Source: Bolinopsis microptera (Eukaryota > Ctenophora > Tentaculata > Lobata > Bolinopsidae). Taken from it: 64,000 nucleotides of DNA. Shown here piece after piece: positions 914 through 53,875 of this stretch. The DNA is taken from NCBI RefSeq assembly GCF_026151205.1, contig NC_087074.1, positions 14,221,167 to 14,285,166 of the forward strand, read 5' to 3'. Both the position numbers and the translations under genes were made by a program. The notes under the pieces are model-generated. The model was not told the origin of the DNA, made no database searches, and was given only the letters and a program-made list of their open reading frames with translations. How positions within the stretch are numbered: the first letter of the stretch is position 1; each line of letters starts with the position of its first letter.

Positions 914-2146
914 TCAATCACAATTAATCTTTCTATTCATTTTCGCGCTAGCTTCTTTCACAGAACCTGCATTGTCAAGGATGGCCGATTTCTTTTTGGG
1001 AACAGGCTTCTTATCCGTAGATTTCTTCTTTGTCGATTTCTTTGGAGCCGTTTTCTTTATGCGTGGTTCGTTCAGCTTAAATCTTCCTTAATTGGGAAGG
1101 TGTTAAAAGATCTTCAAACAATTACGATATTCTAATTGAGCGCCCAACGGTTAAAAGTCACTACAGATAAAACCGACAAACACCAATTTAAATTCGGCGT
1201 TGTAATTGCCATCATCATTGCCATTATTTTGACTAGGTTGAGTGATAAATCATAAAACTGCTGTTCTTTTAGCAGCGACATGGCCGATGTAAAGAAATTA
1301 ACGCGAGATGGGGTTACAGCTAAAACATCATCTTACGACCAAATTTGTTCAATGTGCGGGATTTACCTATCAGACCAGTGGCAGTTCCTGACAGTTTGAT
1401 CAGCTCCCCTTCGTTTATCATCTTCTTTATTTCTCTCTTCATATCTTCTGAAACACAATAAGTTTCGGAAGTCAAGAACGTACAATCTTCCTCAATTAAA
1501 TTAGTGGTTCAAATCAGAATCCGACACAACATTAAGGCTTAATAATTTGTGTCAAAAGTACTTACAACTTACGTTTCACACGGTCCTCATTTATATTAGA
1601 TTTAGGGAAATCATTGTGTTGTATGATGAACTTTATCACGGATTGAGCAGTGTTTCCTCTGTACCTTTTATTGGTGCTCGCTGTGTACGGAGAATGTCAG
1701 ACTATAATATAGACTACTAATTTCTTGAATAATAAGATGCCAAAGACTAGTTTATTTATCATTTCCACTGTTTATATTAAGGCTGTTTATATTAAGGCCA
1801 TTTCGACTGAGGATCGCCCAAAGTAAAAAGTAAGTATATTAAGGCCTCGCGAGACATACAAATTATCAACTTGAAAAATTTACTTACAGTCTGTAAATTG
1901 GTCTCTTTGTTGCAATTGTAGCTCCTTCAGCTCCAACACTGCCTCTTTTATCATTATATTACATTTTGATCTTGAATATCTGGCAATGACCTTCTTTTTG
2001 GAATTGATTTTATTTTTGACGATGGACTCGTCCGTTTGAGTTTCACTTTTTTGAGTTTCACTTTCTTGAGTTTCAATTTCTTGAGTTTCACTTTCTTGAG
2101 TGACGGGCTTGTTGGTGCTTGTTTCATTTTCAGTATTGTCGGCCAT
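914..2146 (-). CDS. Linker histone H1-like protein, four exons, 206 aa
   Basis: Exons on the minus strand are 2146-1888, 1680-1573, 1447-1367 and 1086-914. All introns are GT-AG and in phase 1 (207, 125 and 280 nt), and the frame stays open to TGA at 914-916. The start ATG has an in-frame TAG just upstream. Residues 1-55 are an acidic tail with five TQ motifs spaced exactly five residues apart (16-37). Residues about 56-155 match the winged-helix H15 globular domain: helix 1 around MIKEAVLELKE, helix 2 around NTAQSVIKFI, helix 3 around MKREIKKMINEGEL, and the final wing KLSGTATGLIGRFKLN, the counterpart of the H1 signature GTGASGSFKL. The loop between helices 1 and 2 is about 10 residues longer than usual. 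Residues 156-206 are a short lysine-rich tail with PKKS and KKKS motifs. It should bind nucleosomal linker DNA. Introns are unusual for replication-type H1, so a replacement-type role is likely (inference). Confidence 0.87.
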
Positions 2147-2449
2147 TATCTAGAAATAGTTTGATCAAATATGTGAATTTCAAAATATACAGACCGCTAA
2201 GAAAGGTTGACATATATAATGGCCTTAGCACCCTCTGAAGCTTTGCTTTTCAAATGCATGCAGTTAAACCGGAAAATACTGATCGCTCTCATGAAATCTA
2301 GAAATAAATATTTCGACGTGAAATTTATGACAATTTTAAATTGATAACCCAAATCAGAACAAATGTAATTGATTACACCTAATTAATAACATTAATACTT
2401 TGTTATAAGTATAACTTGTATGAAAAGCATTAATATTATTAACAAACCA

Positions 2450-2870
2450 TCATTTTGTCTAATTCTATTGCAGAGTTCAGTGTGGAAAAGCGACACGCAC
2501 ATAAAGCTATCGGGAGAATGAAAATAACGGACAGACGTGAAACGCGGAAAAGTATTAGTAACGCGAGTGGTGTCACGTGGTTTCTGTGTCACGTGGTTTC
2601 TATCCCACCAATGGCGTACTTATCTCGGCTGATAACCAAATTAAACTGATCGTAATAATAACCCGCGCAAGATGGAGAGAATTCACCGTTGTATAAAGAT
2701 AACGAAAAAGATAAGCAATGCAAACGCGATAATGTGTACATATTGCCGAATTTCGATAAAGCACCGTCCTCTATTTTCCAGTTCGACTGGACACGTGACC
2801 TGCCACGTGGCTTGTCCCCTGCCCACGAGTCATCAATTCTACACAAAGCGCTACTAAAACGGCACACTTA
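2450..2870. promoter_or_regulatory. GC-richer candidate promoter region with four CACGTG boxes
   Basis: The block between the H1-like gene (minus) and the plus-strand gene at 3016 is richer in G+C than its surroundings. It carries CACGTG at 2574, 2590, 2792 and 2804; the first two sit in a direct repeat GTCACGTGGTTTCT. Divergent promoter activity is inferred from position only. No TATA box was recognised. Confidence 0.35.
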
Positions 2871-2946
2871 TACGTCCGATAATAAATGTAATCCTACATT
2901 CTATTTCTATACAAACTGCCTGAAAACCGAAGATATACACTTCTAA
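2672..2946 (+). CDS. Candidate upstream exon, unassigned
   Basis: One plus-strand frame is open from about 2664 to 2946. Its hydrophilic, exon-like translation includes DNVYILPNFDKAPSSIFQF and HESSILHKALLKR. It could be a 5' exon of the gene at 3016-6349, but I found no donor whose phase fits the 3016 exon. Two other frames across the same block are also open (61 codons plus, 92 codons minus), as expected of a GC-richer promoter region. Treat it as unproven. Confidence 0.25.
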
Positions 2947-3015
2947 ATGAACACGAACGTAACTCTTCAATATCATAGTTATCTGTTATACCTTACAACA
3001 TCTGTTGTAATTTAG

Positions 3016-6000
3016 TGTTCCCTATACTATCCTTGTCACATACGGTCTGTTTCGAGACCCATATCTCCTGGGGGATCGATAGAATCAGTCCAATCCATTG
3101 CAGAGATAACTAAAATTTCAGAAATTGGAATCATGCAGTTAAGGAAACCAGAGGAAGGGAGTACACCAGTCTCAACAATTATAGAAAGTGAATCAGCGAA
3201 CCAACAATACTCTAGAGGATTCAATCCTTCAAGGTTTGACAAGTTTTGTCATAGAATTTGAAAACTTGCTGTTATGATAAATTTCAGAACAAGTATTTGC
3301 ATAAAAAAGAAATAACAATGAACAAATTATTGATCGCGAGTAAGACTATATAAAGGAGCACATACAGGGTAAATTATCAAAAGTTGCTTAAAATGTGCGT
3401 TCACAGTTCTAACAACATTAATGCACGTACAGTGTGTTGTGTTCCCACTACACCACGTGGGAGAGACACTCCCAGGAGCACAACAACTACCGGGTCTGCT
3501 GTCCTACACCTCCCCAAATAAAGAGTCCTCCTCCAAACCGCAAGTTTTTTCACATGAAGAGGTGCTCTTTTAAGTTTATTACAGCGGGTTGTTATTTGAT
3601 GAATGAACGAATGGAGCATTCTTTACTCCCTATATCATCAAAAATCAAAGTTGTTTGTAATTTGTTTCTCCACAATTGACCTGTTGACGCATCTAACAAA
3701 ATATCCACGTCAGATGTTCTCTTCAAAAGTGTCACCCTGTGAACGAGCAATCAGTTATCCTGGGTTCCTCCAACCCCTCCGGCAGTTTTTCTACCACAGA
3801 GTGGAGTTTATCCCGATCCTTGATTCAAGTAACGACGTCGGGAGCTCAAAACCGTGGGAAACCCCGCTGGTTCAGTGGGCTGGGTCAAAACCACCCTCCT
3901 CCACCTTCAAGGCTGAGTCCCCGTGTACCATCCACTCCATGCAAACTTGGTCAGTCTGAGTTCAACAACTAGCTAAGTTAAGGGCAGTTCGAATCTTTGC
4001 ATCCACTTGACTAATCTGTAAGGAAGTATTTCAAAAATAAAACGGTATGTACGTTATGGAAAGAAAACAGTAAACTTATCCTTATCAGGCAAAGTACCGA
4101 GCGTCAGCCCGGAGGACACAGATTTACTCCTTCACGACTACAAGACCCTAAAGTTCTTCCTGTGTGCCACCAGAGGGCCCCCTCCATCACAGCAGGAGAT
4201 GAAGGAGGAGGAAGAGGAGGAAGAGATGTCCCCTCCATCTCCCATCTTCAACCGCCGTCCAACTACTCAACCAAACCTAACGTACAGGACTTAAATTTGA
4301 GGTTCTTTGAGGATATGATTCTATTCCCCAATCAATCTCATTGATTCTTTTAATCACGTCCCAAATTTATCAATCATTAGTAATTATGTTGTAACCTCAA
4401 AATAATCTAAATCGGTCCAAGTATCCTTGACGAAATAAGCTATATAATTGAAGATTTATATGCAGGAAAGCGATGAGTTTTAGTTTATCTGAAGGTGTAA
4501 AGGAGGAAAAGTCAGGTGGTGGTAGGCAACGTAGAAGAAATGCCATCACACTGGAGAGTACCTTTACCAGACGCAAACCGTCTTCTTTAAAAAGAAGATT
4601 CTCCTCCTATGTGCAAAATAGCAGGGTTTCCATCACATTTAAACACAAAGTGGGACCTGGTAAGAGATTTGATATTTTAGTTCAGTTTGCTAGATTAAGA
4701 TGTTTCAATCATCTTGTATACTTAAGGTGGCAAGTGATTCAGTACCACTGCAATTGAAGATGTAATTTCGCGGACCCTAATCAAGGTTAGAACAATCTCA
4801 ACGTTTCAGTAGATCCCAATGCAAGAAGGGGCTCCTTTCTGGTGACGCCTGCCCCAAGAGTAAGCAAACCTCCTTTTCGTCCAGTACAAAAAAGCAGACT
4901 TTCTTTCTCTCAAACTTCCGGGTAAACATAATTACAAAACGTTCGGGTTTACAAAATTAAACTCATTTGCTATGTATTTGTCAGTATGTTTCAACCATGA
5001 GGGTACTATTATAGCTTTAATGCAGGCTAGCTCGGTTTACGGTAGAAGAAGACGGCGTTGATAAAATCAGGAAGACCGTTAAGCAGACAGTTTCCATACG
5101 GAGATGCAAGTCAGAAATCTACGATGATGTTATAGTTTCGACGTAAGTTCTTAATAGAAATTAGGTCATGATCGATTAACAGAGGGAAAATATCATCATC
5201 TATATTTTAAGAATAGCCGCTATTGAACTCAAAATTCAAACTTGACCTAAATAACGAAGCAAGATACTAATTCTTTAGACTAAAGTCAACTATTTGAAAG
5301 GTCTGCCCTATTTTTCATTGATTTTCAGACCGTTTAAACAGCTTCTAATTTATTTATGCTTAGTAGGTTAAACTGCGGGTGGTCTTGACCTTCAATGTTC
5401 AAGTTAAACATTATACACCCACTATAACACATATCCACGAGCACCAAACTGTTGCAATAAGCTAACCAGACATCCACGTGCAGCTTTGAGATTTAACGTC
5501 TCCAAAACCTACGAAACATGTTTGAAAATTTGATAAACGGTATGAGAATTGTAATATACTTAGGGCGTTTTAGTAAACTTGCCTGCCGTTCAGCCGTTGT
5601 CATATTTTTGTTAGTGGCGAGGCTGCTTATCTGGGTTACATGGCCGATAAGAAATGTATTAAGTTTACACATAAATAACTGATTTGATATTATTAATTTG
5701 CATATTTGATATTTTAGGACATAATTAATTTTGTTATTAAAATGTTGACCATTGTTAATGATCTGGCCCGGCGCGCGCTACTTCGTAGCACTTGCCGTCG
5801 GGCCATTTCGAGAAGAAAGCGGCGCGCGCTACTTCGAAGAAATTTAGACGAGTAACATCCGTCAATTAAAATGCCGATACATTTTAAATTTTCACCATCA
5901 CCATGTCCCTATCCGACCTTTACAAACACATTTTAAGAGTAATCGATATTATTATTCCCTGTTGTTTCATCGAATTTTACTTGAAAATCTTTAAAAGCAT

Positions 6001-6349
6001 CATAGTTATACATACAATTTCTATAATTTTAGGTAACAAATATTGTTCATCAAACTATCCGATTGAACTGCAGCTGTTCCGAAGACACGCTTTGTAACAT
6101 AAACTAATTACAACGTGTTACATATCTGTTACACTTCTCCTGTCACCAGATGGTTGTCACTATCCAATAACTCAATAATATAAAGCTATTTAACATTATT
6201 TCATTGTAAGAGCTCAAAGACGAAAATATCAGTTCCTACAGAAGTTGTTGTTGAGATTACATTTACAGATTATGTGCTTGTTTTGCAGGGTCAATGATCG
6301 TGGAGTAAGAACTTATACGGATACCAGCAGTACCAGTAGCAAGGCTTAA
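3016..6349 (+). CDS. Eight-exon gene for a disordered Ser/Pro/Arg-rich protein (5' end not found)
   Basis: Proposed exons are 3016-3233, 3433-3561, 3714-3949, 4089-4281, 4466-4659, 4810-4921, 5026-5142 and 6289-6349, 419 codons before TAA. Donor and acceptor phases agree at every junction (2,2,1,2,1,2,2). The best-supported junctions are those from 3949 onward; the second exon is the weakest. The product has no recognisable fold. It has a Pro-rich part (NHPPPPSRLSPRVPSTP), a run of seven glutamates after QQEMK, and several basophilic-kinase-type sites (RRFSSY, RRGSFL, TVSIRRCKSEIYDD), and ends SSTSSKA. This suggests a phosphorylated scaffold or regulator (inference). The 1146-nt last intron carries GC-rich repeats. 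An upstream exon with the start codon is expected, because the first exon begins at an acceptor. I do not recognise the family. Confidence 0.65.
5766..5843. repeat. GC-rich duplicated motif inside the last intron
   Basis: GCGCGCGCTACTTCG occurs twice within about 55 bases. The first copy sits inside a GGCCCG...CGGGCC inverted repeat. This is sharply GC-rich in an AT-rich intron, and no coding potential was seen. Confidence 0.5.
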
Positions 6350-7083
6350 CAATTTCCTCGTCTAGACGAAAATTAGAAAATTAGAGAAATGTGAGAAATG
6401 CCCAGTTATTGTAGCCCAATAACCAAAGTTTTAGTGTAGAATAGACAGTACACACTGTAGACTCTGATTATTATAGTATCCCTGCTATAACAGACACTAT
6501 CTGGAATATTAATCAGGTAGAATACAGGTAGAATACAATTTCAATGCAGGTAGAATGCAGGTAAAATGCCAGAATCTTCCATGTGCCTCCACTAACTGAA
6601 CCTTTACAACAGCTCATATCATGAACCAAATTTACTACATGACGCTGCGAAACCCATTCATTCCCTCGGACGTCAAACTCAAAATTATTCTAGATCATTT
6701 TTGGCATTTACGGAACACATAACTATAAAAATACGGGAGACGTGCTCTGCAGCTTTCTGACTCACATTCTGTGCGGGATAAAATACCAATATATTTTAAC
6801 TAGTAGTATTGTAGTTCTCTCTTTACACCACCTGTCATCAAGATATATTATGTAACTGCGTGCGAGTGCAGTGTACGAGCTGCTTTCTTTATACTACACT
6901 TCTACTTTTGATATCTAGTGTCTGTTTACGGGCTGCTTTCTTTATCTACAGGTCCTACACTCCTACTTTTATTATAATGAACGAGCTGCTTTCTTCTTTT
7001 CTATTTGAGTGAACAAGCTGCACTTGTAGGTCTTGTACTCCTAGTCCTATTTGAGTGTACGCTTTTCTTTACCGACACGGCTC
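6350..7083. other. Non-coding stretch after the plus-strand gene
   Basis: Presumed 3' untranslated and intergenic DNA. It contains short imprecise repeats (AGGTAGAATAC at 6515-6560; GAGCTGCTTTCTT variants at 6875-7000). No ORF or RNA gene was recognised. Confidence 0.5.
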
Positions 7084-7089
7084 GTACCA

Positions 7090-7175
7090 GTTTACCTGGG
7101 GACCCCAGGCTATAATGTTCATAAACATAAGGATTAAAGATTTGGCGGAATGACAGGCTGAGCGCCGCCCAGTAA
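7090..7175. mobile_element. 86-bp miniature element, copy A (6-bp target duplication GTACCA)
   Basis: The unit starts GTTTACCTGGGGACCCCAGG and ends GCCCAGTAA. It is flanked by GTACCA on both sides (7084-7089 and 7176-7181). The core GGCGGAATGACAGGCTGAGC is shared with the copy at 16669-16744, which has a different 6-bp flank. Ends are weakly inverted (TTACCTGGG / CCCAGTAA). It is non-coding, and no superfamily was assigned. Confidence 0.7.
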
Positions 7176-7181
7176 GTACCA

Positions 7182-9109
7182 ATGAATGAGTGAATATTCG
7201 TTTACCAACTGAGCAACTGGTGCTGCACGTAGTACGTCGTTAAAGTAAAATGTGAATATTCTTTTGCTTATTGCATATTTTCGTGTCTACAATTTCTATG
7301 TTACTCACTTTCATCAGAGCATTGTTCTTGTGTTTCCTTTGGTGAGTTTTTTAGATAGGTTTGTGGAATTGGAATGAATTTGTCTGAGGAACTTAGAGGG
7401 AGCAACAGTACGTATAAAAATACCACAACGATAAAATTACCATAATATGTTGTTATTACACTGACACATTAATCGGGGTTCAATTATGAACTTCTCGGCA
7501 TTTACCAGCGCTAAGTACCTAAAATGTAACAATATGAGCTTGTAACAGGTGTGCAGTTATAAAGTTATAAGTCCTGGTGTAAAGTTGTAAAGTTGTGATG
7601 ATGAATAACTATAAGCTGCACGATCCATTCGAAATATTATTATTTGTAATTTTCTCATAAAATCTGTCCAAGCCAGGCAGAGTAAATTTGTGATTAATAT
7701 TATCAGACCATACACATAATAAATAAGGCTGATTGGAAACATGAGAATGCTGAAACTAGGCTTGTTAAACGTTGCTCTATTGTCCTGGCGGCTCTGTTAC
7801 CACGACAGATTACATGTCGTATTATACCATAGCCATAGGAGAGTGATCAAGCTCATACCAATGAATTGTCGACCTTTTAATCTCATTTCTGTCATAGAGC
7901 AATTTACACTTGACAGCGATAGATTGCTGGCCTAGTTGCCTTTATACATCACCATTCTCGCCACTGTGCAAATATATTTTATATTTGTACAATGTACAAA
8001 TATAAAACATAAAAGCTCGCAACATGTACAATGTACATGTTGCGAGCTTTTATATTTCTGTCGTGACAGTTTAATGATTCTCTTTGCGGTTATTTCGCCG
8101 AGGTAAAAATATAATTGTTACCGCTCTTGGCAGGTTCAAGTGGAGCTCTTTGACGGGCCGTGATCGAGCGTTTGCTTTCGGTATCTTAATATGTGTTTAA
8201 GTAGTTTATTTAAATCATGGCATGCCCATTTATATGACCCTAATTATGCCTGACTAGTGACAACCCTAGGTATACAATGCCTTTAAATCATACTGAACCG
8301 TCAAAGATTGGACAGCAGAAAATGAAATTTAATTGCAAATATGTTGTATTATGAATTTTATCATTTTTTATTAATTCTACAATATTAGCTATGCTTCAGG
8401 ATAATACATATTGCGACTGCAGTGAACTTAAAGTCTAATTTCACCCATTATAGCAATAGTATAGAATCCACAGCACTGTGTTTGTCCGGACTGATATTGT
8501 AATCTTTAGCATTACAGCTATAAACAAAAGCAATTAATCAGTTTGCGTCAGGGAGATAACCAGCGATAAGCACCGCTACCTAATAATGTTCTCGTCTCTG
8601 AACGACTTAAATTCATTAGCCAGAGCTGGCAAATCGGAATGTCATTTTTTGCTTCCGTTTGGGAAGTACACATATGCACAGATCAAATTATTGCCTTTTG
8701 GCATTTTCTTCATTTCCACATTATTTTATTAACAAATAGCGTGGAATTTAGTAAAACTGGGTTCGGAAGGTCTCAACCAGTAAATTAATTTACCGGAGAG
8801 TCAAAGCTTATTATGTAAGAATACATTTTTTATTTTAAAAACATTGAAGGACTTTTGAGCAATACTAATGAAGAAAATAAAAGTATAAATGTCCATATAT
8901 GAAAAACAATCGACCGTGTATTGGAGTAAACAGTTCAATTAAACAGTAAATCAAATTCAATCTAAAGCACCGTCGTATTTATTAGTCTGTAAGGAGATCA
9001 TTTTAAAGAGAATTTCTTGTCCCCGTGTGTGTGACTCGTTATCATCTTGTTCGGACACACGTTATCAGTTATCGGCTATCGCGCTATCACATTACTTCAT
9101 TTATATCGT
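7182..9109. other. AT-rich intergenic DNA
   Basis: Only short ORFs without exon character are present. Apart from the palindrome pair at 7979-8053 I see nothing that can be called. Confidence 0.5.
7979..8053. repeat. Two adjacent perfect palindromes sharing a TGTACAATGTACA core
   Basis: The first is TTATATTTGTAC-aat and its complement (about 7979-8005). The second has 21-bp perfect arms, ATAAAAGCTCGCAACATGTAC with a 3-base loop (8009-8053). The shared loop and core suggest one arose from the other, or that both are recognised by the same factor. Confidence 0.75.
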
Positions 9110-9375
9110 GATCTGATTGGGAGGCGCGCAACCACTTGATTTAAAACTGTGCGCTGATTGGTCACTATACGCCCACGTGCAGCTGAATTATCAGCTGATC
9201 GATGTAGCGGGACATTTTGACTTATACTCTAATTTAGACTATAGTGTGTGGTCCTACTACTATCGGTACATTTTGCTGAGTTTTTCTTTTGTTTTTCCTT
9301 CTCTTAGTTTTACCACTACCAGTATATAAGTCCCTAGTCCTTCGCCGAGAAACACTAGAAAATATTACATCCAGG
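9110..9375 (+). promoter_or_regulatory. Orphan TATA promoter with two CCAAT boxes
   Basis: Two inverted CCAAT boxes (GATTGG at 9115 and 9156), an E-box (CACGTG at 9174) directly followed by CAGCTG, and TATATAAG at 9323-9330 have ordinary polymerase II promoter spacing. A CAG|GTGTGA donor-like site follows at 9374/9375, about 45 bases past the TATA box, as if ending a short non-coding first exon. No downstream plus-strand gene was identified. It may drive a non-coding RNA or a gene disrupted by the LINE insertion. Confidence 0.4.
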
Positions 9376-11160: not shown

Positions 11161-11414
11161 TATCTTCCAAAAAACAGGAGGACCGATCTAAAGCTTACTG
11201 CTAAGCAAGCACGTATTATTTTGGTAAAGATGTTACGTACTCTGAGTATTTTTCCTTTCTTTTGTCAGCAGTCAGACACATGTCTTGGCAGCAACTCTTT
11301 GAAGACAGCCGCGTGTCCCAACAATTGAGTGCTATTCTATTTTATTATCTTAGATCTTTCTGCCGCTTACTTTTTATTTTGGTATAGTGGCGCCGTCATC
11401 AGTATCATTGAATT

Positions 11415-12958
11415 GGCACTATCCGTCGCGGAGTAGAATCCGCGGCGGAGCCGCCGGACTCCGAGCAGACTCCGAGCGGACTCCGGCGGAGCCGCCGGAC
11501 TCCGAGCGGACTCCGGCGGTGCTCCGCCAAAATGTATTTACACTGGACTCGAGTACATTTTGGCGGACTCCGAGCGGAGCCGAGCGGACTCCGAGCGGAC
11601 TTTAAAGTCCGCCGCGGACTCCGAGCGGCTCCGCGGCGGCTCGGCGGAGTGTCCGCCGCGGACTAAGCCACTAGGCGAACTCCAGTCCGCCGCGGACTCC
11701 GGCGGAGTGCTTGGCGGACTCCGCCGGACCTCTCCGCCAGACTTGAATCCGGCGGAGTCCGGCGGAGCTTGGCGGAGTCCGCCAGCTCGGCGGACTCCGC
11801 TCGGAGTCCGCCGGACTCCAACAGAGTCCACTGACTTCCGACCTCCGACTTCCGACCCTCGGCTAAATTTGTCACGTGACATACAACATAGCATTTTGCA
11901 ATATTGTGGTCAGATGAAAAGGTCGCTAGTGATAAACCTTAACCATTACCCTCACAATGTCAATAGTGTACAACTCTAGTCCTAACTTTGACCCTATAAT
12001 GTATAAACGTTGACCCTAACCCTCCACCAAACCGTCCGCAGCGAAATATCAATGTCATTGACTGGTCACGTGACCAAAACAATTTTTGTCATATTATCTC
12101 ATATAGGGAAGCGTTTTTAGTTTTACCCTACACGTTGCATGTGGCGTCATTCGGCCGGATCCCAGCAAGCAAAAATACGTCGACCATCACAGGACGACGC
12201 CAGCCAGCACTCTCTACGCTCTTCGAGCTCCGATCGCCCTGTGACGAAGTAAGGACGAAGCCTGAAGTCCTCAGGTAACATCGACCACCGATTGAAAATT
12301 CAAAGATTTTTTGACATTAAGGTCAAATGTAAAACTAAAATCTTGATGTTGATTGATTGACGACGTCAATTTTTGAGTACAGCGCGAGCGCATGCGGAAA
12401 AGGACTGCGTAGCTAGTCAAGATGTTGATAAATATTTGGCTTGTGGCGCGATGTATTGCTCTAAGTATAGCCCTCTCGCTTGCAGTAGCGTGCGACCGCC
12501 GGAAATGACTTGTGGAACAAGCGCGCCCGCAGCGGCGCGAAAGCACATGGTTAGCTAGATGAACGCGATGTGCCTTGCATTGTAAGATGAAATCTTACTA
12601 GCTGACGCCACTCGCAGCTGTGATGTTCGCTGTTCGTCAGCGATCGAAATTTATACGCGTATCACCCGTTAAGATGTGCCACCCGACGCGCCACGCAATT
12701 TTTCTCGTTGCTCGTCGCACGTCGACGAACAACGAAGCTCGTTGCGACGCGCAATGAGCTGCCAGGCTAGGACTTGTCATACGTTGTATGACCCGCCGCG
12801 CACAAAGTGCGCGGCTCCCCCTGTATCGTCCCCCTGTATCGTCTATAGTGAAACGACCGTGGGGGTCGCAACGTGATACAAGCTAGGACATCGTCCTGGT
12901 CCAACAAATTTTGGCGAGCGCGCCGAGCAATTTTCTCCAAAAATTTAATGAGGGCGCC
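11415..12958 (+). repeat. Left inverted arm of the foldback element
   Basis: It is the reverse complement of 16348-17674 with small indels. The outer 11436-11835 consists of permutations of CCGGACTCCGAGCGGA/CTCCGGCGG. Inside lie a GTCACGTGAC palindrome at 11872 and another at 12065. A 108-bp insertion (12774-12881) and a roughly 75-bp block near 12165-12240 are missing from the right arm. Confidence 0.85.
12774..12881. mobile_element. 108-bp miniature element in the left arm, 8-bp target duplication GCTAGGAC
   Basis: The unit begins TTGTCATACGTTG and ends CAACGTGATACAA (imperfect inverted ends). It is flanked by GCTAGGAC at 12766-12773 and 12882-12889. The right arm has the empty site, with a single GGCTAGGAC. 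An internal hairpin CCGCGCACAAAGTGCGCGG is present. Confidence 0.8.
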
Positions 12959-13185
12959 GACTTCCACTTTGGCTAGGTTTCTTTTTATAGGGGGTGCACG
13001 ATAAAAAATAAAGTTGCTTGGGACCCTGGTCATTAGGAAAGTTCGCACGAGATGGACCTCATTTTCCCATTTTAACTTTAGAAGATTGTCACAGGAAGAA
13101 CTTCTAAGATAGGCATATGATATTTCACATATCTATAGTTCAACTAATTTTGTTTCGATTAATAAAAGTTTTGAAGCATTTAGTC

Positions 13186-13905
13186 GAGGGCAAATTGAGG
13201 CTAACGAGTCATTTACATTTTGTCTCCTAATAACAGCTTCTAAGCATGCTATAAAAGTTTAAACATGTTTAATCGATTCATCAGATCTCACTCTTTCAGA
13301 ATCCAGAGAGATGAGGGAAATTTGTTCACTAATTGAGGGAAAAATGAGGCTAACAAGTTATTACTAATTTTTGAATTATTTTTGAATAATAGCGTCTATC
13401 AAAGTATCCTCTGACCTAAAATACATGATATGGATACTCTAGGTTGAAAGCTGGCCCAGCCGTCCCCTTTTTTCTTCTAATTGAGGGGGAAATGAGGCTA
13501 ACAGATCTTTTCTAATTTTTTAATTATGTTTGAACAATAACGTCCTTTAAACTATCCTTTGCCCTGGTATACATGAGATGGATGCTCTAGGTCGAAGGCT
13601 GGCCCAGCCATTTCCTTCTAATGGAGGGTAAAATGAGGCTAACAGATCTTTTCTGATTTTCGAATTATGTTTGAACAATAACGTCCTTTAAACTATCCTT
13701 TGCCCTGGTATACATTATATGGATACTTTAGGTCGATGGTAGACTCCACCTACCCTTTCTGTCTTTTGATGGAGGGTAAAATAAGGCTAACTATCAAGGT
13801 TTTGTTAATTTCTTGTTCTACTGCTTCTTCGGACTAGCCCTTCAATTTCAAATTGTTTCTGCCTAACCTTTATTCAGTTGAGAGGTAAGATTGAGGCTAA
13901 CTCCT
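13186..13905 (+). repeat. Left motif array: about 145-bp units carrying AAATGAGGCTAAC
   Basis: TGAGGCTAAC occurs at 13196, 13345, 13493, 13634 and 13892, with a one-base variant near 13782. It is usually preceded by GAGGG plus 3-5 bases. Units around 13490 and 13635 are near-identical over 130 bp. Confidence 0.8.
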
Positions 13906-13935
13906 GCTTATTATAATATTTTATAAGCGATAGTT

Positions 13936-14575
13936 TTAATGCTGAATGCTTTTATTTTCTTTCTCTAATTCCACTTTTGACCTATATGACAGCCACTTAT
14001 TATTTTCAAATTCGCACATTACAAAACTAATTGCACTGCTTTTTAGAGCCCTCTCGCCAGCTGTACTACCATTAATTAAGAGGTATTGAATTAAATATTG
14101 GTATAATTCAACAACTTGACGTAGATTTATTGTTTGTGAGTGCATTAATCAGACTGATTTAGCGTTTGGCAAAAGTTTATGATTATAATTTGTTTAAAAA
14201 TATTTCCTTGCGTTTGAGATGCGAAATAAAACCTTCCCTTGTAAAACTTTCTCAAACAGTTCCATTTTTATTATACTTTATAGTTTATAGCCTAATTTGG
14301 CATGATATCAGATCATGTGATATTACATGGCCCCATGGAGAGCATTGCCAGAGCAGTTGGCCAGAGAGCTCCATAGGAGTAAGGGGCCTACTCTAGCCAA
14401 CAGTTCTAATACATGTCCTTCCTCAACTTCATTTTCTTATCTAACTGCTGCTGCTGCTCAGCAACTACTTGACAGCTGGCACAGTGACGTTTGTCTGCGT
14501 AGTGTATCTGTTAGCCTCAATTCTGCCTCAAGGAGGGAAGGTATCCTCAATCCAACCTCACATAAGTTTCGATAA
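13936..14575. other. Single-copy centre of the nested element with two weak ORFs
   Basis: The minus strand 14145-13936 encodes 69 residues containing LRQVVELYQYLIQYLL and a charged end (SKVELEKENKSIQH). The plus strand 14327-14575 encodes 82 residues beginning MAPWRALPEQLARELHRSK. Neither is recognised. They could be remnants of a transposase or of captured host sequence, or chance ORFs. Confidence 0.3.
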
Positions 14576-15780
14576 AGTCTCAATAACCTTCGGGCTACAA
14601 TTACAAGTTTTATAGTGGGTCTATAACATGTTTCCGTACATTAAAGTTAAAATGCGGTCGAATTATTTATTAGCCTCATTTTGGCCTCCTACAAATAGAC
14701 TCGGCGATTTCTGAACTGTTGAGCTTGAAGAGGATGAATCAATTTTTATTGTTGACATATTAGATAGTCACAATACCGAACCTACTCGAAAATATACACA
14801 ACAGTATACTTGTTAGCCTCATTTCACCCTCTCAAAAGGTAGTTAGCCTCATTTTCACGTCGAATATTTGAAGCTATAATCCCAAGGAATTTAATGTGCA
14901 ACACAGATATCAAGTAACTTGTGAGTTGTTAACCTGTTACCGTACATTAAAGTTAAAATGCGGTCAAATTCTTTATTAGCCTAGTGTATCTGTTAGCCTC
15001 AATTCTGCCTCAAGGAGGGAAGGTATCCTCAATCCAACCTCACATAAGTTTCGATAAAGTCTCAATAACCTTCGGGCTACAATTACAAGTTTTATAGTGG
15101 GTCTATAACATGTTTCCGTACATTAAAGTTAAAATGCGGTCGAATTATTTATTAGCCTCATTTTGGCCTCCTACAAGTAGACTCGGCGATTTCTGAAATG
15201 TTGAGCTTGAAGAGGATGAATAAATTTGTATTGTTGACACATTAGATAGTCACAATACCGAACCTGCTCAAAAATATACACAAAAGTATACTTGTTAGCC
15301 TCATTTCACCCTCTCAAAAGGTGGTTAGCCTCATTTTCACCTCGAATATTTGAAGCTTAGATATCGATAAAGTCTCAATAACCTTCGGGCTTCAATAACA
15401 AGTTTATTAGTGGGTCCATAACCTGTTTCTGTACATTAAAGTTAAAATGCGGTCAAATTCTTTATTAGCCTCATTTTGGCCTCCTACAAGTAGACTCGGC
15501 GATTTCTGAAATGTTGAGCTTGAAGAGGATGAATACATTTTTATTGTTGACATATTAAATAGTCACAATACCGAACCTGCTCAAAAATATACACAAAAGT
15601 ATACTTGTTAGCCTCATTTCACCCTCTCAAAAGGTGGTTAGCCTCATTTTCACCTCGAATAATTAAAGCTTAGATCTCGATCAAGTATAATCACTATGGA
15701 TTATACTTGCAACTTGGATATCATGGACGTAACACGAGAATGTTCTTTTTTGAAAATAATGAGTAAATTTGTTAGCCTCA
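14508..15780 (-). repeat. Right motif array: about 370-bp units carrying GTTAGCCTCA
   Basis: Units start near 14508, 14990 and 15364 (partial). Each has several copies of (G/A)TTAGCCTCA followed by TTTxxxCCTC, for example near 14510, 14670, 14812, 14842, 14991, 15150, 15294, 15326, 15464, 15607, 15639 and 15770. Orientation is opposite to the left array, so both arrays face the element centre. Confidence 0.8.
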
Positions 15781-16347
15781 ATTGTCCCTCGCAGTTCAAT
15801 CACTCCTACTGAGTTTTGTGAGTGAGCTAGGAGGTCGCCGGACATCTCATTTTTAAGCCGTATTAATTTTCTATACGCATACAAAAAATTGAATGCGTAA
15901 CTAAAACAGAAATGAAATTACGGATGTTTTAAATTTTTTTTCAAAAACGAACTTTTAGGGGTGTTTCTAATGACCAGGGTCTTGGATTTAAAAAAATTGT
16001 TTACCACTGTTTTCTAGAGACTGTGAGAATTTTCACAATACCAAATTTGTTATACCTTTTTGGAAAGATCAGTGAGTTTCGCCTAGGTGCCATATTTGAT
16101 GGTGCGCGGCTTTTGGAGCAAAAGTAGCTGTAAAAGTCGCGTAATTTGACCAAATTCGTCCAAATTTGACCATTTTTGTCGTATTATTCGGATTTATCTT
16201 CAGTTCCTTAAATGAGATCATTCTGGAAATTGGCGAGGACCTTCCAATTGGGCTTTCACAACTTTCCGAAAAATTTAGTGGATATCGGAGTTGATATAGT
16301 AATAAAAATGGGGCAAAATACGCTGCTTTTAGCTGTAACAATTTTTC

Positions 16348-17674
16348 TCGCGCCCTCATTAAATTTTTGGAGAAAATCGCTCGCCAAAATTTGTTGGACC
16401 AGGACGATGTCCTAGCCTGGCAGCTCATTGCGCGTCGCAACGAGCTTTGTTGTTCGTCGACGTGCGACGAGCAACGAGAAAAATTGTGTGGCACGTCGGG
16501 TGGCACATCTTAACGGGTGATACGCGTATAAGTTTCGATCGCTGACGTACAGCGAGCAGCACAGCTGCGAGTGGCGTCAGCTAGTAGGATTTCATCCTAC
16601 AAGGCACATCGCGTTTACCTAGCTAACCAGGTCATTTTCGCCTCCGGCGGTCGCGCGCTACTGCAAGCTTACCTGAGGACCCCAGGCTTTAATGTTGTTA
16701 ATAGAGATTAGGCGGAATGACAGGCTGAGCGCGGCCCAGTAATTGCAAGCGAGAGGGCTATAGTTAGACTTAGAGCAACACATCGCGCCACAAGCCAAAT
16801 ATTTATCAACATCTTGACTAGCTACGCGGTCCTTTTCCGCATGCGCTCGCGCTGTGCTCAAAAATTGACGTCGCGTCGTCAATCAATTAACATCAAGATT
16901 TTAGTTTTACATTTAACCTTTATGTCAAAAAATCTCTGAATTTTCAATCGGTGGTCGATGTTACCTGAGGACCTCAGGCTTCGTCCTTACTTCGTCACAG
17001 GGATCCGGCCGAATGACGCCACATGCAACGAGTTGGGTAAAACTAAAAACGCTTCCCTATATGAGATAATATGACAAAAATTGTTTTGGTCACGTGACCA
17101 GTCAATGACATTGATATTTCGCTGCTGGCGGTTTGGTGGAGGGTTAGGGTCAACGTTTATACATTATAGGGTCAAAGTTAGGACTAGAGTTGTACACTAT
17201 TGACATTGTGAGGGTAATGGTTAAGGTTTATCACTAGCGACCTTTTTATCTGACCACAATATCGCAAAATGCTATTGGCTATGTTGTATGTCACGTGACA
17301 AATTTAGCCGAGGGTCGGAAGTCGAAAGTCGGAAGTCAGTGGACTCTGTTGGAGTCCGGCGGACTCCGAGCGGAGTCCAAGCTCCGCCGGACTCCGCCGG
17401 ATTCAAGTCTGGCGGAGAGGTCCGGCGGAGTCCGCCAAGCACTCCGCCGGAGTCCGCGGCGGACCGGAGTCCGCCTAGTGGCTTAGTCCGCGGCGGACAC
17501 TCCGCCGAGCCGCCGCGGAGCCGCTCGGAGTCCGCTCGGCTCCGCTCGGAGTCCGCCAAAATGTACTCGAGTCCAGTGTAAATACATTTTGGCGGAGCAC
17601 CGCCGGAGTCCGCTCGGAGTCCGCTCGGAGTCCGGCGGCTCCGCCGCGGACTCTACTCCGCAACGGATAGTGCC
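16348..17674 (-). repeat. Right inverted arm of the foldback element
   Basis: It is the reverse complement of 11415-12958. The GC-rich repeat block is at 17328-17655. Open frames here and in the left arm are mirror images of each other and of repeat permutations, so they are not genes. This arm carries the extra insertion at 16669-16744. Confidence 0.85.
16669..16744. mobile_element. 76-bp miniature element, copy B (6-bp target duplication GCAAGC)
   Basis: The unit starts TTACCTGAGGACCCCAGG and ends GCCCAGTAATT, flanked by GCAAGC at 16663-16668 and 16745-16750. It is homologous to 7090-7175. The left arm of the foldback element has the uninterrupted empty site (complement of CTACTGCAAGCGAG near 12475), which proves insertion. 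Confidence 0.85.
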
Positions 17675-17682
17675 ATTGAATT

Positions 17683-46515: not shown

Positions 46516-47023
46516 TAACAGCCGGCTAACAGCCATCTAACAGCCGGCTAATAGCCATCTAACAGCCGGCTAATAGCCATCTTACAGCCGGCTAAAGCCT
46601 CTAACAGCCGGCTACTAGCGATCTAACAGCCGGCTAATAGCCATCTAACAGCCGGCCTAATAGCCTCTAACAGCCGGCTAATAGCCAATCTAACAGCCGG
46701 CTAATAGCCATCTAACAGCCGGCTAATAGACCATCTAACAGCCGGCTATAGCCATCGAACAGCCGGCTATAGCCTCTAACAGCCGGCTAATAGCCATCTA
46801 ACAGCCGGCTAATAGCCATCTAAGGCTAATAGCCAGCTAACAGCCGGCTAATAGCCATCTAACAGTCGGCTAATAGCCATCTAACAGCCGGCTAATAGCC
46901 ATCTAACAGCCGGCTAATAGCCATCTAACAGCCGGCTAATAGCCATCTAACAGCCGGCTAATAGCCATCTAACAGCTGGCTAATAGCCATCTAACAGCCG
47001 GCTAATAGCCATCTAACAGCCGG
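46516..47023. repeat. 22-bp satellite AACAGCCGGCTAATAGCCATCT, array 1
   Basis: About 23 copies with small indels and substitutions; more degenerate at the left edge than in the middle. Each unit contains the palindrome AGCCGGCT. Confidence 0.97.
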
Positions 47024-49786: not shown

Positions 49787-50019
49787 TCATATATTATGAT
49801 TTATAATTATCATAAAACGTAGTAGAATCACGTGTCGAGCAGTTGTGAAAAGTAGCAGCCTGCCCCCTCTCTCTTGAATAATACATGCGGAGTAAGACCT
49901 GTCAACTGAGTGCTCTTTGGTTTGCAGCATAACTTTGTTCACTTTGTAATCATTTGGCAATGAATCATCAGTTGGATATGACCCAGAATCTTCACACCGA
50001 ATGCTGTCCGGTAAGTATA
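49787..50019 (-). CDS. Minus-strand coding exon in duplicated unit, copy 1
   Basis: Acceptor ACTTTTAGTGCAG at 50020 opens a frame of 77 codons to TGA at 49787. The translation is gene-like: YLPDSIRCEDSGSYPTDD then NDYKVNKVMLQTKEHS and YSACIIQERGG. The last 20 or so residues may be read into an intron (a possible donor is CGACAC|GTGATT), so the true 3' end is unsure. Upstream exons are not found; the next element upstream is a transposon at 50147. Not recognised. Confidence 0.45.
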
Positions 50020-51157: not shown

Positions 51158-51253
51158 GGCAATTCGGTAATCTGTCGATGGTCACTTAACGCACGGTCAA
51201 GGCACGGTTAACGCACAATTAACGGACACTTAACGCACGGTTACCGAATTGCC
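51158..51253. mobile_element. 96-bp element, 8-bp duplication TTAGGTAC (copy 1)
   Basis: Ends GGCAATTCGGTAA and exact complement; TTAGGTAC at 51150-51157 and 51254-51261. The interior has repeats of TTAACGCACGGT. It starts with GGCA and makes an 8-bp duplication, like the 6.26-kb foldback element. A GGCGG...CCGCC hairpin sits just outside at 51126-51145. Confidence 0.88.
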
Positions 51254-51470
51254 TTAGGTACTTGCGCACTCATTAGAGAAGGCTAAAAGTAAAAGTCGCT
51301 ATTTTGGTGTTTGCTCTCTATCGAACAAATTTTTGCAAGAAAAATTAGACAATCTGTTGTGTTTGAATTGCGTCTTCACTTTTTGGGCATAAACTCATGA
51401 CTGAATCTGGTTAAGCACTTTAGCTTATAAACGGTTATTTGACTTTTCAAGATTTAGATAAGTTCTAACT

Positions 51471-51649
51471 TTAAAAAGATTTCTTTAAGTGTACTTCTAT
51501 AATACTCCATACGGATATATAAACGGCATCTTTGACTGATTTAACTACTTTTCTCTTCATTTTAAATTCCCATTCGATCATGAAGCGTGCGTCACTAGGT
51601 GATAATTCTTTTCTTTCTTTTGAAAATCTTATTCTTTTTGTGGTTTTAT
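51471..51649 (-). pseudogene. Coding exon truncated by the duplication junction
   Basis: It carries the same C-terminal reading frame as the copy at 56581-56781 (KELSPSDARFMIEWEF... HLKKSF, stop at 51471). Its upstream part is replaced by satellite DNA at 51650, so the acceptor and first eight or so codons are lost. Confidence 0.6.
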
Positions 51650-52139
51650 AGCCATCTAACAGCCGGCTAATAGCCATCTAACAGCCGGCTAATAGCCATC
51701 TAACAGCCGGCTAATAGCCATCTAACAGCCGGCTAATAGCCATCTAACAGCCGGCTTATAGCCATCTAACAGCCGGCTTATAGCCATCTAACAGCCGGCT
51801 AACAGCCGGCTAATAGCCATCTAACAGCCGGCTAATAGCCCTCTAACAGCCGGCTAATAGCCATCTAACAGCCGGCTAATAGCCATCTAACAGCCGGCTA
51901 ATAGCCATCTAACAGCCGGCTAATAGCCATCTAACAGCCGGCTAATAGCCAGCTAACAGCCGGCTAATAGCCATCTAACAGTCGGCTAATAGCCATCTAA
52001 CAGCCGGCTAATAGCCATCTAACAGCCGGCTAATAGCCATCTAACAGCCGGCTAATAGCCATCTAACAGCCGGCTAATAGCCATCTAACAGCTGGCTAAT
52101 AGCCATCTAACAGCCGGCTAATAGCCATCTAACAGCCGG
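51650..52139. repeat. 22-bp satellite, array 2 (duplication junction)
   Basis: About 22 copies of AACAGCCGGCTAATAGCCATCT. More homogeneous than array 1. It abuts copy 1 at TTTTAT|AGCCATCT. Confidence 0.97.
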
Positions 52140-53875
52140 TCAGCATTGTACCTATTTGCCGACATTTATTCAAATTGATATTCGTCCAAAACAATGCCCA
52201 GACCTAAATAGATCCATTAAGAAGGAGACTGAGTTTATCTGACTGAGCCCAAACTTGATTAGATTTAATTGTTAGAAGACGGCGTTTATCAATTCCATTC
52301 GCATCTCATTTTGTTCGCCTTCAGGTTGCCTATCTTTATTCCCATTGTTTATAGCCTTTTTATTGGTATCAGACTATTAGTCCAAAAATATTTTCAACAT
52401 GAAAAAATAATATGACAATGCAAAATCTGACAGAAGTTGTTTAGGATATATTGTGAACATAATTCAGGGCAACTTCCTTTTCTTCCCAACTATCCCGATT
52501 TCAAAACCCCATTGTGAATCAATTAGTTAATTGAATTACTGTTTGGTGCGAAAGTCATCGCATCAACATTTGGTGCCTGGATGGGCGTGACACAATGACA
52601 AACCACTTTTACTTTATCTTTTCGCTCAATTACATCCTACAATGAGCCCATTACCCGCAGTACGGGCCGTACCCCGGTTTAATACGCTACTTTGGCCACT
52701 TTACCCTAACCTAGCCACATTACCACATTAACACACGAACACACCCTGCTCTGCTTTCTACCTTGTAATATGGGTCCTTAAAAGGTCCCTGCTCTATAAC
52801 CCTCTTACATGACCCTTTAATTTGCTTGTTCAGTTACTCGTTAAAATGAACCTCTTAACCATGAGTGCTGGATACAGGGAGACCGCCACGGAGGAACGTG
52901 TAGATGGCTTCGTTCTTGTGTTGATTGCTGGTCCAATCTCGTCCTTTCTCACCAACTCTTCATTAGCTTTTAGATAGTTCCTTGTTTTCGTTGGTTTAGA
53001 TTCGACCTTTTAAATTGTGTGCATCAGTTCAGCTTGAATACCAAGAGAGCTATATGTGGGGCGTGGGCTACCCACTCAGAATCTTCATTGACAAAGCTTT
53101 GATATCTAGTTCACATCAATTTCATTCAACACGGACATTGTTGCCATTTTAGTTAACATGTCACACTTGTTATGTTCCAAATACATTGATACAATACATA
53201 TTATATACGTATTACTTGTTATGTTGCATAATGACGTCTTTCGTGAGGTTTTTTCCAGTTAACTGTTTACTATTTATAACTTCCACTCATCTTATTCTTA
53301 ATGATCTGTAAAATATGCTATAAATGGTTAATACTTAATTGTCATTTCTTTTTGTCGGTTCATCACCGATCCAACTTCAAGGGCTCAAAATAATCATGGA
53401 TGTAGCTGGTATCTGAATTAATGTAAATGCAAGATAAGGTTATACATCAGGATTCAAGATGATGTATCGTACAGTCTCTAAAAGCTTTGTCGATCTGACC
53501 AGTTCCACTGTAATTGAAAAGTTTAGATTTGACTGTGGCGATTCGTACCAATTTTTGTTAGACGGGAATTAAAACGACGATATTTCTGTACCAAGCCTAA
53601 CAATGCCCTGCATTCAGCAAATAAAGGATAATCCTGCATTTTATTCACTTTTATTCTAAAATTTCTTATCAGACAATTCTCAAGAAGGATCCATTAATTT
53701 GTCTATTTAGTCTAATTATCCGAATTTTTATTCGCAATAAAATCGTCACATCTATTAATTTTAAATTTTAATTGTGTGGTCAAAACAATGTGATAGTGGT
53801 TACCAGGTCATAGTCACGTGACCTCAGCCATGATAGTGGTATTAAGACCGAGCACAAATGTCAAAGTTATGTTAA

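What the first reader, a model, noticed from the sequence alone, without database searches (positions are those of the whole stretch)
11415..17674. New foldback transposon family with 1.3-1.5-kb arms and GC-rich repetitive tips
Exact 8-bp duplication, terminal GGCACTATCCGT and arms built from CCGGACTCCGAGCGG permutations define a complete element. The design parallels Galileo/Foldback, but no transposase is present to classify it.
Basis: partly seen in the sequence, partly recalled or inferred. Interest (0 to 1): 0.72.

Follow-up and report, generated by a model that had tools for sequence, protein, structure and literature searches.

The report
Foldback transposon likely moved by Merlin
A real jumping-DNA family whose copies are little more than two long mirror-image arms, probably moved by enzymes of a known transposon group (Merlin) that in this genome can build its ends from similar DNA-helix-spaced repeats.

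Summary
In detail: window 11415-17674 has inverted arms (95.8% identical outside gaps) between exact 8-bp duplications ATTGAATT. It is composite: 13022-15981 is another transposon (TSD TTGG) nested inside, so the foldback itself is 3.3 kb. Its 17-base tip occurs 202 times in the 264.65-Mb genome (reversed control 0). Of 29 tip pairs read, 24 have exact 8-bp TSDs; 5 of 17 insertions tested have complete empty counterparts elsewhere. No transposase was found in it by the tests run.

A Galileo-type mover is not supported. Merlin transposons start with GG and make 8-9-bp TSDs, as here. In this genome two Merlin families carry arrays of 11-bp units just inside their ends; one, read at both ends, has them inverted, with 8-bp TSDs and a 932-bp derivative with the same tips. 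The foldback tips start GGCA and consist of 10/11-bp-phased units. I infer a gene-less foldback moved in trans by a Merlin transposase (0.62). Weak points: no Merlin with these ends was found (0 of 58 matches within 12 kb of the 163 of 202 ends listed), most other Merlin samples showed no such array, and one array first counted proved doubtful.

The parts
11407..11414 (.). left copy of the 8-bp target-site duplication ATTGAATT
   Evidence: identical at 17675-17682; 24 of 29 tip pairs have exact 8-bp TSDs
11415..12773 (+). left inverted arm of the foldback
   Evidence: aligned to the reverse complement of 16409-17674, 95.8% identity outside gaps
11415..11850 (+). GC-rich left tip: end GGCACTATCCGTCGCGGAG followed by 10/11-bp units (CGGACTCCGAG and variants)
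   Evidence: TRF period 11 at 11455-11519; GC 0.69; 63 tips peak at period 10-11
12774..13021 (.). spacer, left part; its last four bases TTGG are the nested element's left TSD
13022..15981 (.). separate nested transposon, 2960 bp, not part of the foldback: TIR GACCCTGGTCATTAG, 4-bp TSD TTGG; GAGGCTAAC motifs in its left half, GTTAGCCTC in its right half
   Evidence: TIR/TSD and single TTGG in L020 and L028; gap in copy alignments; motif positions
15982..16408 (.). spacer, right part; its first four bases TTGG are the nested element's right TSD
16409..17674 (-). right inverted arm of the foldback
17330..17674 (-). GC-rich right tip with 11-bp units (CCGCTCGGAGT)
   Evidence: TRF 17521-17556 and 17600-17634; GC 0.68
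17675..17682 (.). right copy of the 8-bp target-site duplication ATTGAATT

Best explanation
The window holds one copy of a non-autonomous foldback DNA transposon family (roughly 100 copies, inferred from 202 exact tips) that is most likely moved by a Merlin-superfamily (IS1595-type DDE) transposase. The family is nearly all arms: a short end starting GGCA, a GC-rich array of units spaced 10-11 bp, about one DNA turn, then further inverted arm and a small spacer. Inferred mechanism: a Merlin transposase made elsewhere in the genome binds the repeated units along one face of the helix, pairs the two tips, cuts the element out and inserts it with an 8-bp staggered cut. Shown: the ends, the 8-bp TSDs, insertion into repeats whose empty versions survive, and, in the same genome, Merlin families with GG-starting ends and 11-bp arrays just inside them (one family read at both ends, with 8-bp TSDs). 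Inferred: that a Merlin transposase recognises these tips, and that the units are its binding sites.
For: Merlin as published: 5'-GG end, 8- or 9-bp TSD, TIRs 24-462 bp (PMC8101967, passages). The foldback has GG, exact 8-bp TSDs in 24 of 29 tip pairs and long TIRs. Five insertions (L012, L017, L024, L025, L028) of 17 flank-joins submitted have complete 99-100% empty counterparts elsewhere with one TSD copy. The genome has 58 Merlin DDE_Tnp_IS1595 matches, 17 in open frames of 300 aa or more, one of them with a stop. Family of L051/L058: in 5 of 5 copies read the outer 40 bp are identical at both ends (GGCAACTTGTACGAACACCG...), 3 of 5 have an exact 8-bp TSD; L058/L060 has inverted 11-bp arrays at both tips; a 932-bp pair with no Merlin match inside has the same tips and an exact 8-bp TSD (interior not read). 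Family of L050/L059: aligned copies start at GGTAACTCGG with an 11-bp array about 25 bp inside. L052 has an 11-bp array at a like distance from its Merlin gene. Foldback tips: in 63 tips the period-11 self-match is 0.371 against 0.280 (sd 0.003) in shuffles; best period 11 in 37, 10 in 20. A second foldback with 11-bp arms (L048:7168-8415) has a right end whose first nine bases equal the Merlin end.
Against: No Merlin match lies within 12 kb of the 163 listed of 202 foldback ends, so no autonomous partner with these ends was found. The shared end sequence is only GGCA plus loose similarity. The foldback units mix 10 and 11 bp, the Merlin arrays are sharply 11. Of 5 Merlin loci read in context, 4 hold 11-bp arrays, but in L053 the array sits where the first 120-139 residues of the gene should be and is shared with L048, so it is probably a foreign insert. 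L052's element ends were not found. Of 10 further Merlin matches sampled in one-sided 551-bp windows, 1 (L077, the L050 unit) shows an 11-bp array; L074 is 99.8% identical to L053 over the same stretch, so the ten are not all separate families. L049 and L069 have a 15-bp unit. Short-period arrays are not confined to Merlin: copy L054 of a nested 21-kb element has 10-bp arrays, and the window has 11/22-bp arrays elsewhere. The 63 tips are related copies, not independent trials. hAT and KDZ transposases were not searched.
Confidence: 0.62

Rival explanations
1. A Mutator-like (MULE) foldback, like Tm1 of root-knot nematodes, moved in trans by a MULE transposase.
For: 88 MULE matches in the genome. 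MULEs often have long TIRs (PMC3310237, start of abstract); Tm1 is a Mutator/Foldback family with composite TIRs (PMC3169594, passages). One MULE match (C7:10589183) lies 2964 bp from a left foldback end.
Against: TSDs are 8 bp where present; Tm1 makes mostly 9 (8-10) and maize Mu 9 (PMC2774946, start of abstract). Only 1 of the 87 MULE matches compared lies within 12 kb of a listed end, about what chance gives; the 88th is on C103, which has no listed end.
Confidence: 0.12
2. A P-superfamily foldback like Galileo.
For: Architecture: long, internally repetitive TIRs, transposase-less copies; P elements make 8-bp TSDs (PMC4168063, passages).
Against: No match to the P-type model PF21787 in this genome, though the control genomes were silent too. 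Galileo TSDs are mostly 7 bp with GTANTAC; here 8 bp, AT-rich, no such consensus.
Confidence: 0.06
3. Moved by hAT, KDZ or another superfamily with 8-bp TSDs, or by a DDE family not yet described; the helical phasing would then be convergent with Merlin's.
For: 8-bp TSDs occur in several superfamilies (recalled); no autonomous partner was found; short-period arrays also occur in a non-Merlin element here (L054). hAT and KDZ were not searched.
Against: hAT ends usually start CAGNG (recalled), unlike GGCA. Among loci read, only Merlin ones combine GG ends, 8-bp TSDs and inverted 11-bp tip arrays.
Confidence: 0.2

Closest known systems
Merlin superfamily DNA transposons (IS1595-related)
   Same: 5'-GG end, 8-bp TSD; tandem repeats inside some Merlin copies are reported (PMC8101967, passages); two Merlin families here have 11-bp arrays just inside their ends
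   Different: Published TIRs are 24-462 bp; here arms of about 1.3 kb, no transposase gene, and no Merlin with identical ends found
Galileo (P superfamily) of Drosophila
   Same: Long, internally repetitive inverted arms; transposase-less copies; other transposons inserted in them (PMC4168063, passages)
   Different: TSD 7 bp, rarely 8, consensus GTANTAC; P-type transposase; no PF21787 match here, control silent
Tm1 Mutator/Foldback of root-knot nematodes
   Same: Composite foldback TIRs, transposase-less groups, nested insertions (PMC3169594, passages)
   Different: Mostly 9-bp TSDs, Mutator-like transposase
Tetris foldback of Drosophila virilis
   Same: A foldback transposon linked to tandem repeats (PMC4079207, title and start of abstract only)
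   Different: Not compared in sequence

Membership tests
Merlin | TIR begins 5'-GG | tested here: met
   GGCACTATCCGTCG tips; GG rule from PMC8101967 passages
Merlin | 8- or 9-bp TSD | tested here: met
   24 of 29 tip pairs exact 8 bp; 5 empty sites among 17 joins submitted
Merlin | DDE_Tnp_IS1595 transposase in the element or in a relative with the same ends | tested here: not met
   0 of 58 Merlin matches within 12 kb of the 163 listed of 202 ends; tblastn of five Merlin proteins against loci L009-L048 and the window copy gave no match at E<=1. So it is not filed as a member, only as probably Merlin-moved
Merlin families of this genome with 11-bp arrays | arrays of 11-bp units directly inside the ends | tested here: inconclusive
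   foldback tips peak at 10 and 11 bp; Merlin arrays sharply 11, placed inside the ends in two families; L053's array doubtful; 1 of 10 one-sided samples
P superfamily / Galileo | 7-bp (rarely 8) TSD with consensus GTANTAC | tested here: not met
   24 TSDs of 8 bp, 72% AT, no such consensus
P superfamily / Galileo | P-type transposase in the genome | tested here: inconclusive
   PF21787: 0 matches, but the control rang nowhere
Mutator-like / Tm1 | mostly 9-bp TSD | tested here: not met
   exact TSDs are 8 bp; Tm1 allows 8-10 but is mostly 9
Mutator-like / Tm1 | MULE transposase between such ends | tested here: inconclusive
   1 of 87 MULE matches compared lies within 12 kb of a listed end; that locus was not read
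hAT | hAT transposase; ends of the CAGNG type (recalled) | not tested
   no hAT family search was run; the ends GGCA do not fit the recalled type
Foldback-type architecture (descriptive, not a lineage) | long inverted arms with internal repeats around little unique DNA | tested here: met

The most novel reading that the evidence does not exclude
This genome hosts Merlin families that build their ends as large inverted arrays of family-specific, helix-phased units, with a second zinc-knuckle-like protein in at least one family, and that shed their genes to become arms-only foldback elements; the window element belongs to a large such foldback family. The units would be stacked transposase binding sites whose number sets how well a copy competes for the enzyme.
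Probability: 0.4. Interest if true: 0.65.

Novelty: new variant of a known kind. Interest (0 to 1): 0.48.

Why it matters
Foldback elements are named for their shape, and the mover is often unclear; Galileo was traced to P and Tm1 to Mutator (passages). Tying one to Merlin would add another route to the same shape. The 11-bp phasing, with a different unit in each of two Merlin families, would offer a testable code for how a transposase recognises its own ends. Novelty in print was checked only by searches of the open library: the Merlin-with-repeats search listed 2 papers and the Merlin-with-foldback search 4; no listed title or start of abstract describes a Merlin foldback, but only three papers were opened, for passages.

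Tried and rejected
Proteins inside long foldback pairs as the missing transposase: two long open frames (1267 aa in the C4 11.2-kb pair, 1341 aa in the C1 25.3-kb pair) looked like candidates. Rejected: for each, the two further copies fetched share sequence only within a nested element with its own ends and show no foldback tip in the stretch read (7.94 kb, TIR CCCAGGAAA, TSD AT; 21.2 kb, TIR TAGGGGGTG, TSD CTTTCAT). The other long pairs hold a reverse-transcriptase frame (C1 17.8 kb) or were not resolved (C1 9.7 kb, C4 13.5 kb, C7 22 kb).

The first TIR/TSD scans of five Merlin loci found no good ends; for L051 the piece fetched was too short, and aligning two copies solved it. An autonomous relative with the first 12 bases but a different 13th: 5 sites, one the window's own right end. 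Empty site of the window copy: none, flanks unique. In one search the self-blastn printed nothing, and the Merlin tblastn had an empty query; redone. Rfam: no match in the window at gathering scores. PDB sequence search with the two nested proteins: only E>=0.65 coiled-coil matches for one, none for the other. Short DNA matches (71-344 bp, 81-93%) between the inside of foldback loci L029 and L042 and DNA beside the Merlin gene in L053/L074 were looked at as a possible direct link; the same sequence also occurs in L056, so I treat it as a dispersed repeat and do not count it. Structure prediction was not used.

A 30th pair, L046 (one end with a mismatch), also has an exact 8-bp TSD CATTTATT by eye and is left out of the count of 29; L044, L045, L047 and L048 showed no partner end in the stretch read and were not counted.

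Full report
Observation. The window element runs 11415-17674 between exact copies of ATTGAATT. The arms pair over 11415-12773 and 16409-17674 with 95.8% identity outside gaps and 233 gap columns of 1429. The outer 350-430 bp of each arm is GC-rich (0.68-0.69 against 0.38 for the window) and holds short units that TRF reads as period 11. The central 13022-15981 is a different transposon nested inside: its ends are GACCCTGGTCATTAG, its target duplication is TTGG, and copies L020 and L028 show a single TTGG there. Without it the foldback is 3300 bp, in line with other copies: 19 of 23 pairs are 2.2-4.3 kb.

Family. The 17-base tip occurs 103 times forward and 99 reverse in the genome, with none for the reversed control. 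Of 29 tip pairs read, the window included, 24 have exact 8-bp direct repeats, 72% AT, without a clear consensus. The five without are L010, L018, L019, L021 (7 of 8 bases) and L043. Five pairs of 11.2-25.3 kb still carry exact TSDs; two were resolved as foldbacks holding other transposons. Among left ends of 21 copies, 190 of 210 pairs aligned over more than 300 bp, with median identity 96% and maximum 99.5%. For the 17 of 23 flank-joins submitted, 40 of 1009 candidate places were scored, and 5 insertions (L012, L017, L024, L025, L028) have complete empty counterparts at 99-100% identity with one TSD copy. The ends, the TSD length and transposition are therefore shown; the near-identity suggests these five insertions are recent. 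The window copy sits in unique DNA and has no such counterpart.

Looking for the mover. tblastn of five Merlin proteins against loci L009-L048 and the window copy found nothing. Long open frames in the two largest-frame pairs belong to nested elements, and another pair holds a reverse transcriptase; three long pairs were not resolved. Pfam searches of the genome gave 58 Merlin, 88 MULE and 0 P-type matches (control silent); hAT and KDZ were not searched. No Merlin match lies within 12 kb of the 163 ends listed of 202; 1 of 87 MULE matches compared does.

The Merlin link. Merlin elements are described with GG ends and 8-9-bp TSDs, and tandem repeats are noted inside some families (PMC8101967, passages). 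In this genome 4 of 5 Merlin loci read with about 1 kb either side hold arrays of 11-bp units, each with its own unit. In two families the array lies just inside the element's end: L051/L058 (ACATTAAGACA) and L050/L059 (GCACACCTCGG). L052 (ACCGGTTAAGA) has its array at a like distance from the gene, but its ends were not found. L053's array does not count: it replaces the first 120-139 residues of the gene and recurs inside the foldback of L048, so it is probably a foreign insert.

The L051/L058 family was read at both ends in five copies: the outer 40 bp are identical (GGCAACTTGTACGAACACCG...), 3 of 5 have exact 8-bp TSDs. Copy L058/L060 has inverted 11-bp arrays at both tips, a 318-aa Merlin transposase, and a second 340-aa frame with a sub-threshold zinc-knuckle match. 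Searching that end with up to 2 mismatches gave 53 places against 4 in the reversed control; 9 of the 58 Merlin matches have such an end within 6 kb in the right orientation, 8 on both sides. A 932-bp pair at C13:5068739-5069670 has the same tips, the start of the 11-bp units on both sides, an exact 8-bp TSD (TGTGTCTT) and no Merlin match; its interior was not read. So this Merlin family makes short gene-less forms with array tips. A second foldback with 11-bp arms, L048:7168-8415, has a right end whose first nine bases equal that Merlin end; its left end differs from its right end at two of these bases and no TSD was found.

The window's foldback begins GGCA, and its 63 tips (40 loci plus the window) have self-match peaks at 10-11, 20-21 and 30-31 bp: 0.371 at 11 against 0.280 (sd 0.003) when shuffled in 20-bp blocks. 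The tips are related copies, so they are not independent trials.

Limits. I call the element probably Merlin-moved (0.62), not a proven Merlin.

How it most likely works (inferred): transposase supplied in trans, stacked binding along one face of the helix at each tip, cut-and-paste with an 8-bp stagger. Long near-identical arms would also allow pairing and exchange between copies; copies without TSD and the inverted duplication around L043 fit that.

Noticed in passing
window 13022-15981: Nested 2.96-kb transposon with ends GACCCTGGTCATTAG and TSD TTGG; GAGGCTAAC recurs in its left half and GTTAGCCTC in its right half, with 141-bp and 313-bp tandem repeats.
   Followed up: partly
L039-L041 (G000 C1:8333508-8359234), joined positions 1537-22738: A 21.2-kb transposon nested in a foldback copy: ends TAGGGGGTG, 7-bp TSD CTTTCAT, a 1341-aa open frame with no Pfam match over its cut-off; some motifs look DDE-like to me by eye. 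Two further near-full copies and a 36% relative in the genome.
   Followed up: partly
L032-L033 (G000 C4:16218311-16229974), joined positions 1190-9128: A 7.94-kb transposon nested in a foldback copy: ends CCCAGGAAA, TSD AT, a 1267-aa open frame with no Pfam match over its cut-off; three full copies, relatives at about 28-36%.
   Followed up: partly
L043 (G000 C7:5864265-5869757): Foldback copy at the axis of an inverted duplication: its two 200-bp flanks are near-identical in opposite orientation.
   Followed up: partly
L058 and L060 (G000 C6:5037324-5040984): Merlin element with a second 340-aa frame on the other strand: CCHC-like start (sub-threshold zf-CCHC match) and long Pro/Ala repeats; L050's tail appears to start a similar protein (by eye).
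   Followed up: partly
L048:7168-8415 and L053:1598-2401: L048 holds a different foldback with 11-bp GTCTATGCAAC arms; its inner repeats also occur in L053, where they sit in place of the start of a Merlin gene.
   Followed up: partly
L029:4066-4260, L042:2726-3143, L053:1-716, L074, L056:5767-6501: A dispersed repeat shared by the inside of two foldback loci, DNA beside a Merlin gene and a third locus; nature unknown.
   Followed up: partly
window 46516-47023 and about 51244-52345: Arrays of a 22-bp (2 x 11) unit TAACAGCCGGCTAATAGCCATC in two places about 5 kb apart; identical 163-aa frames at 49787 and 54897 suggest a 5.1-kb tandem duplication.
   Followed up: no
L049 and L069: Merlin loci with a 15-bp palindromic unit (TGGTCCATGGACC type) instead of an 11-bp unit.
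   Followed up: no
G000 C1:6793943 and C1:6960659: Two foldback left ends share the same ten preceding bases GCCCCTTCTC, suggesting a duplicated segment.
   Followed up: no
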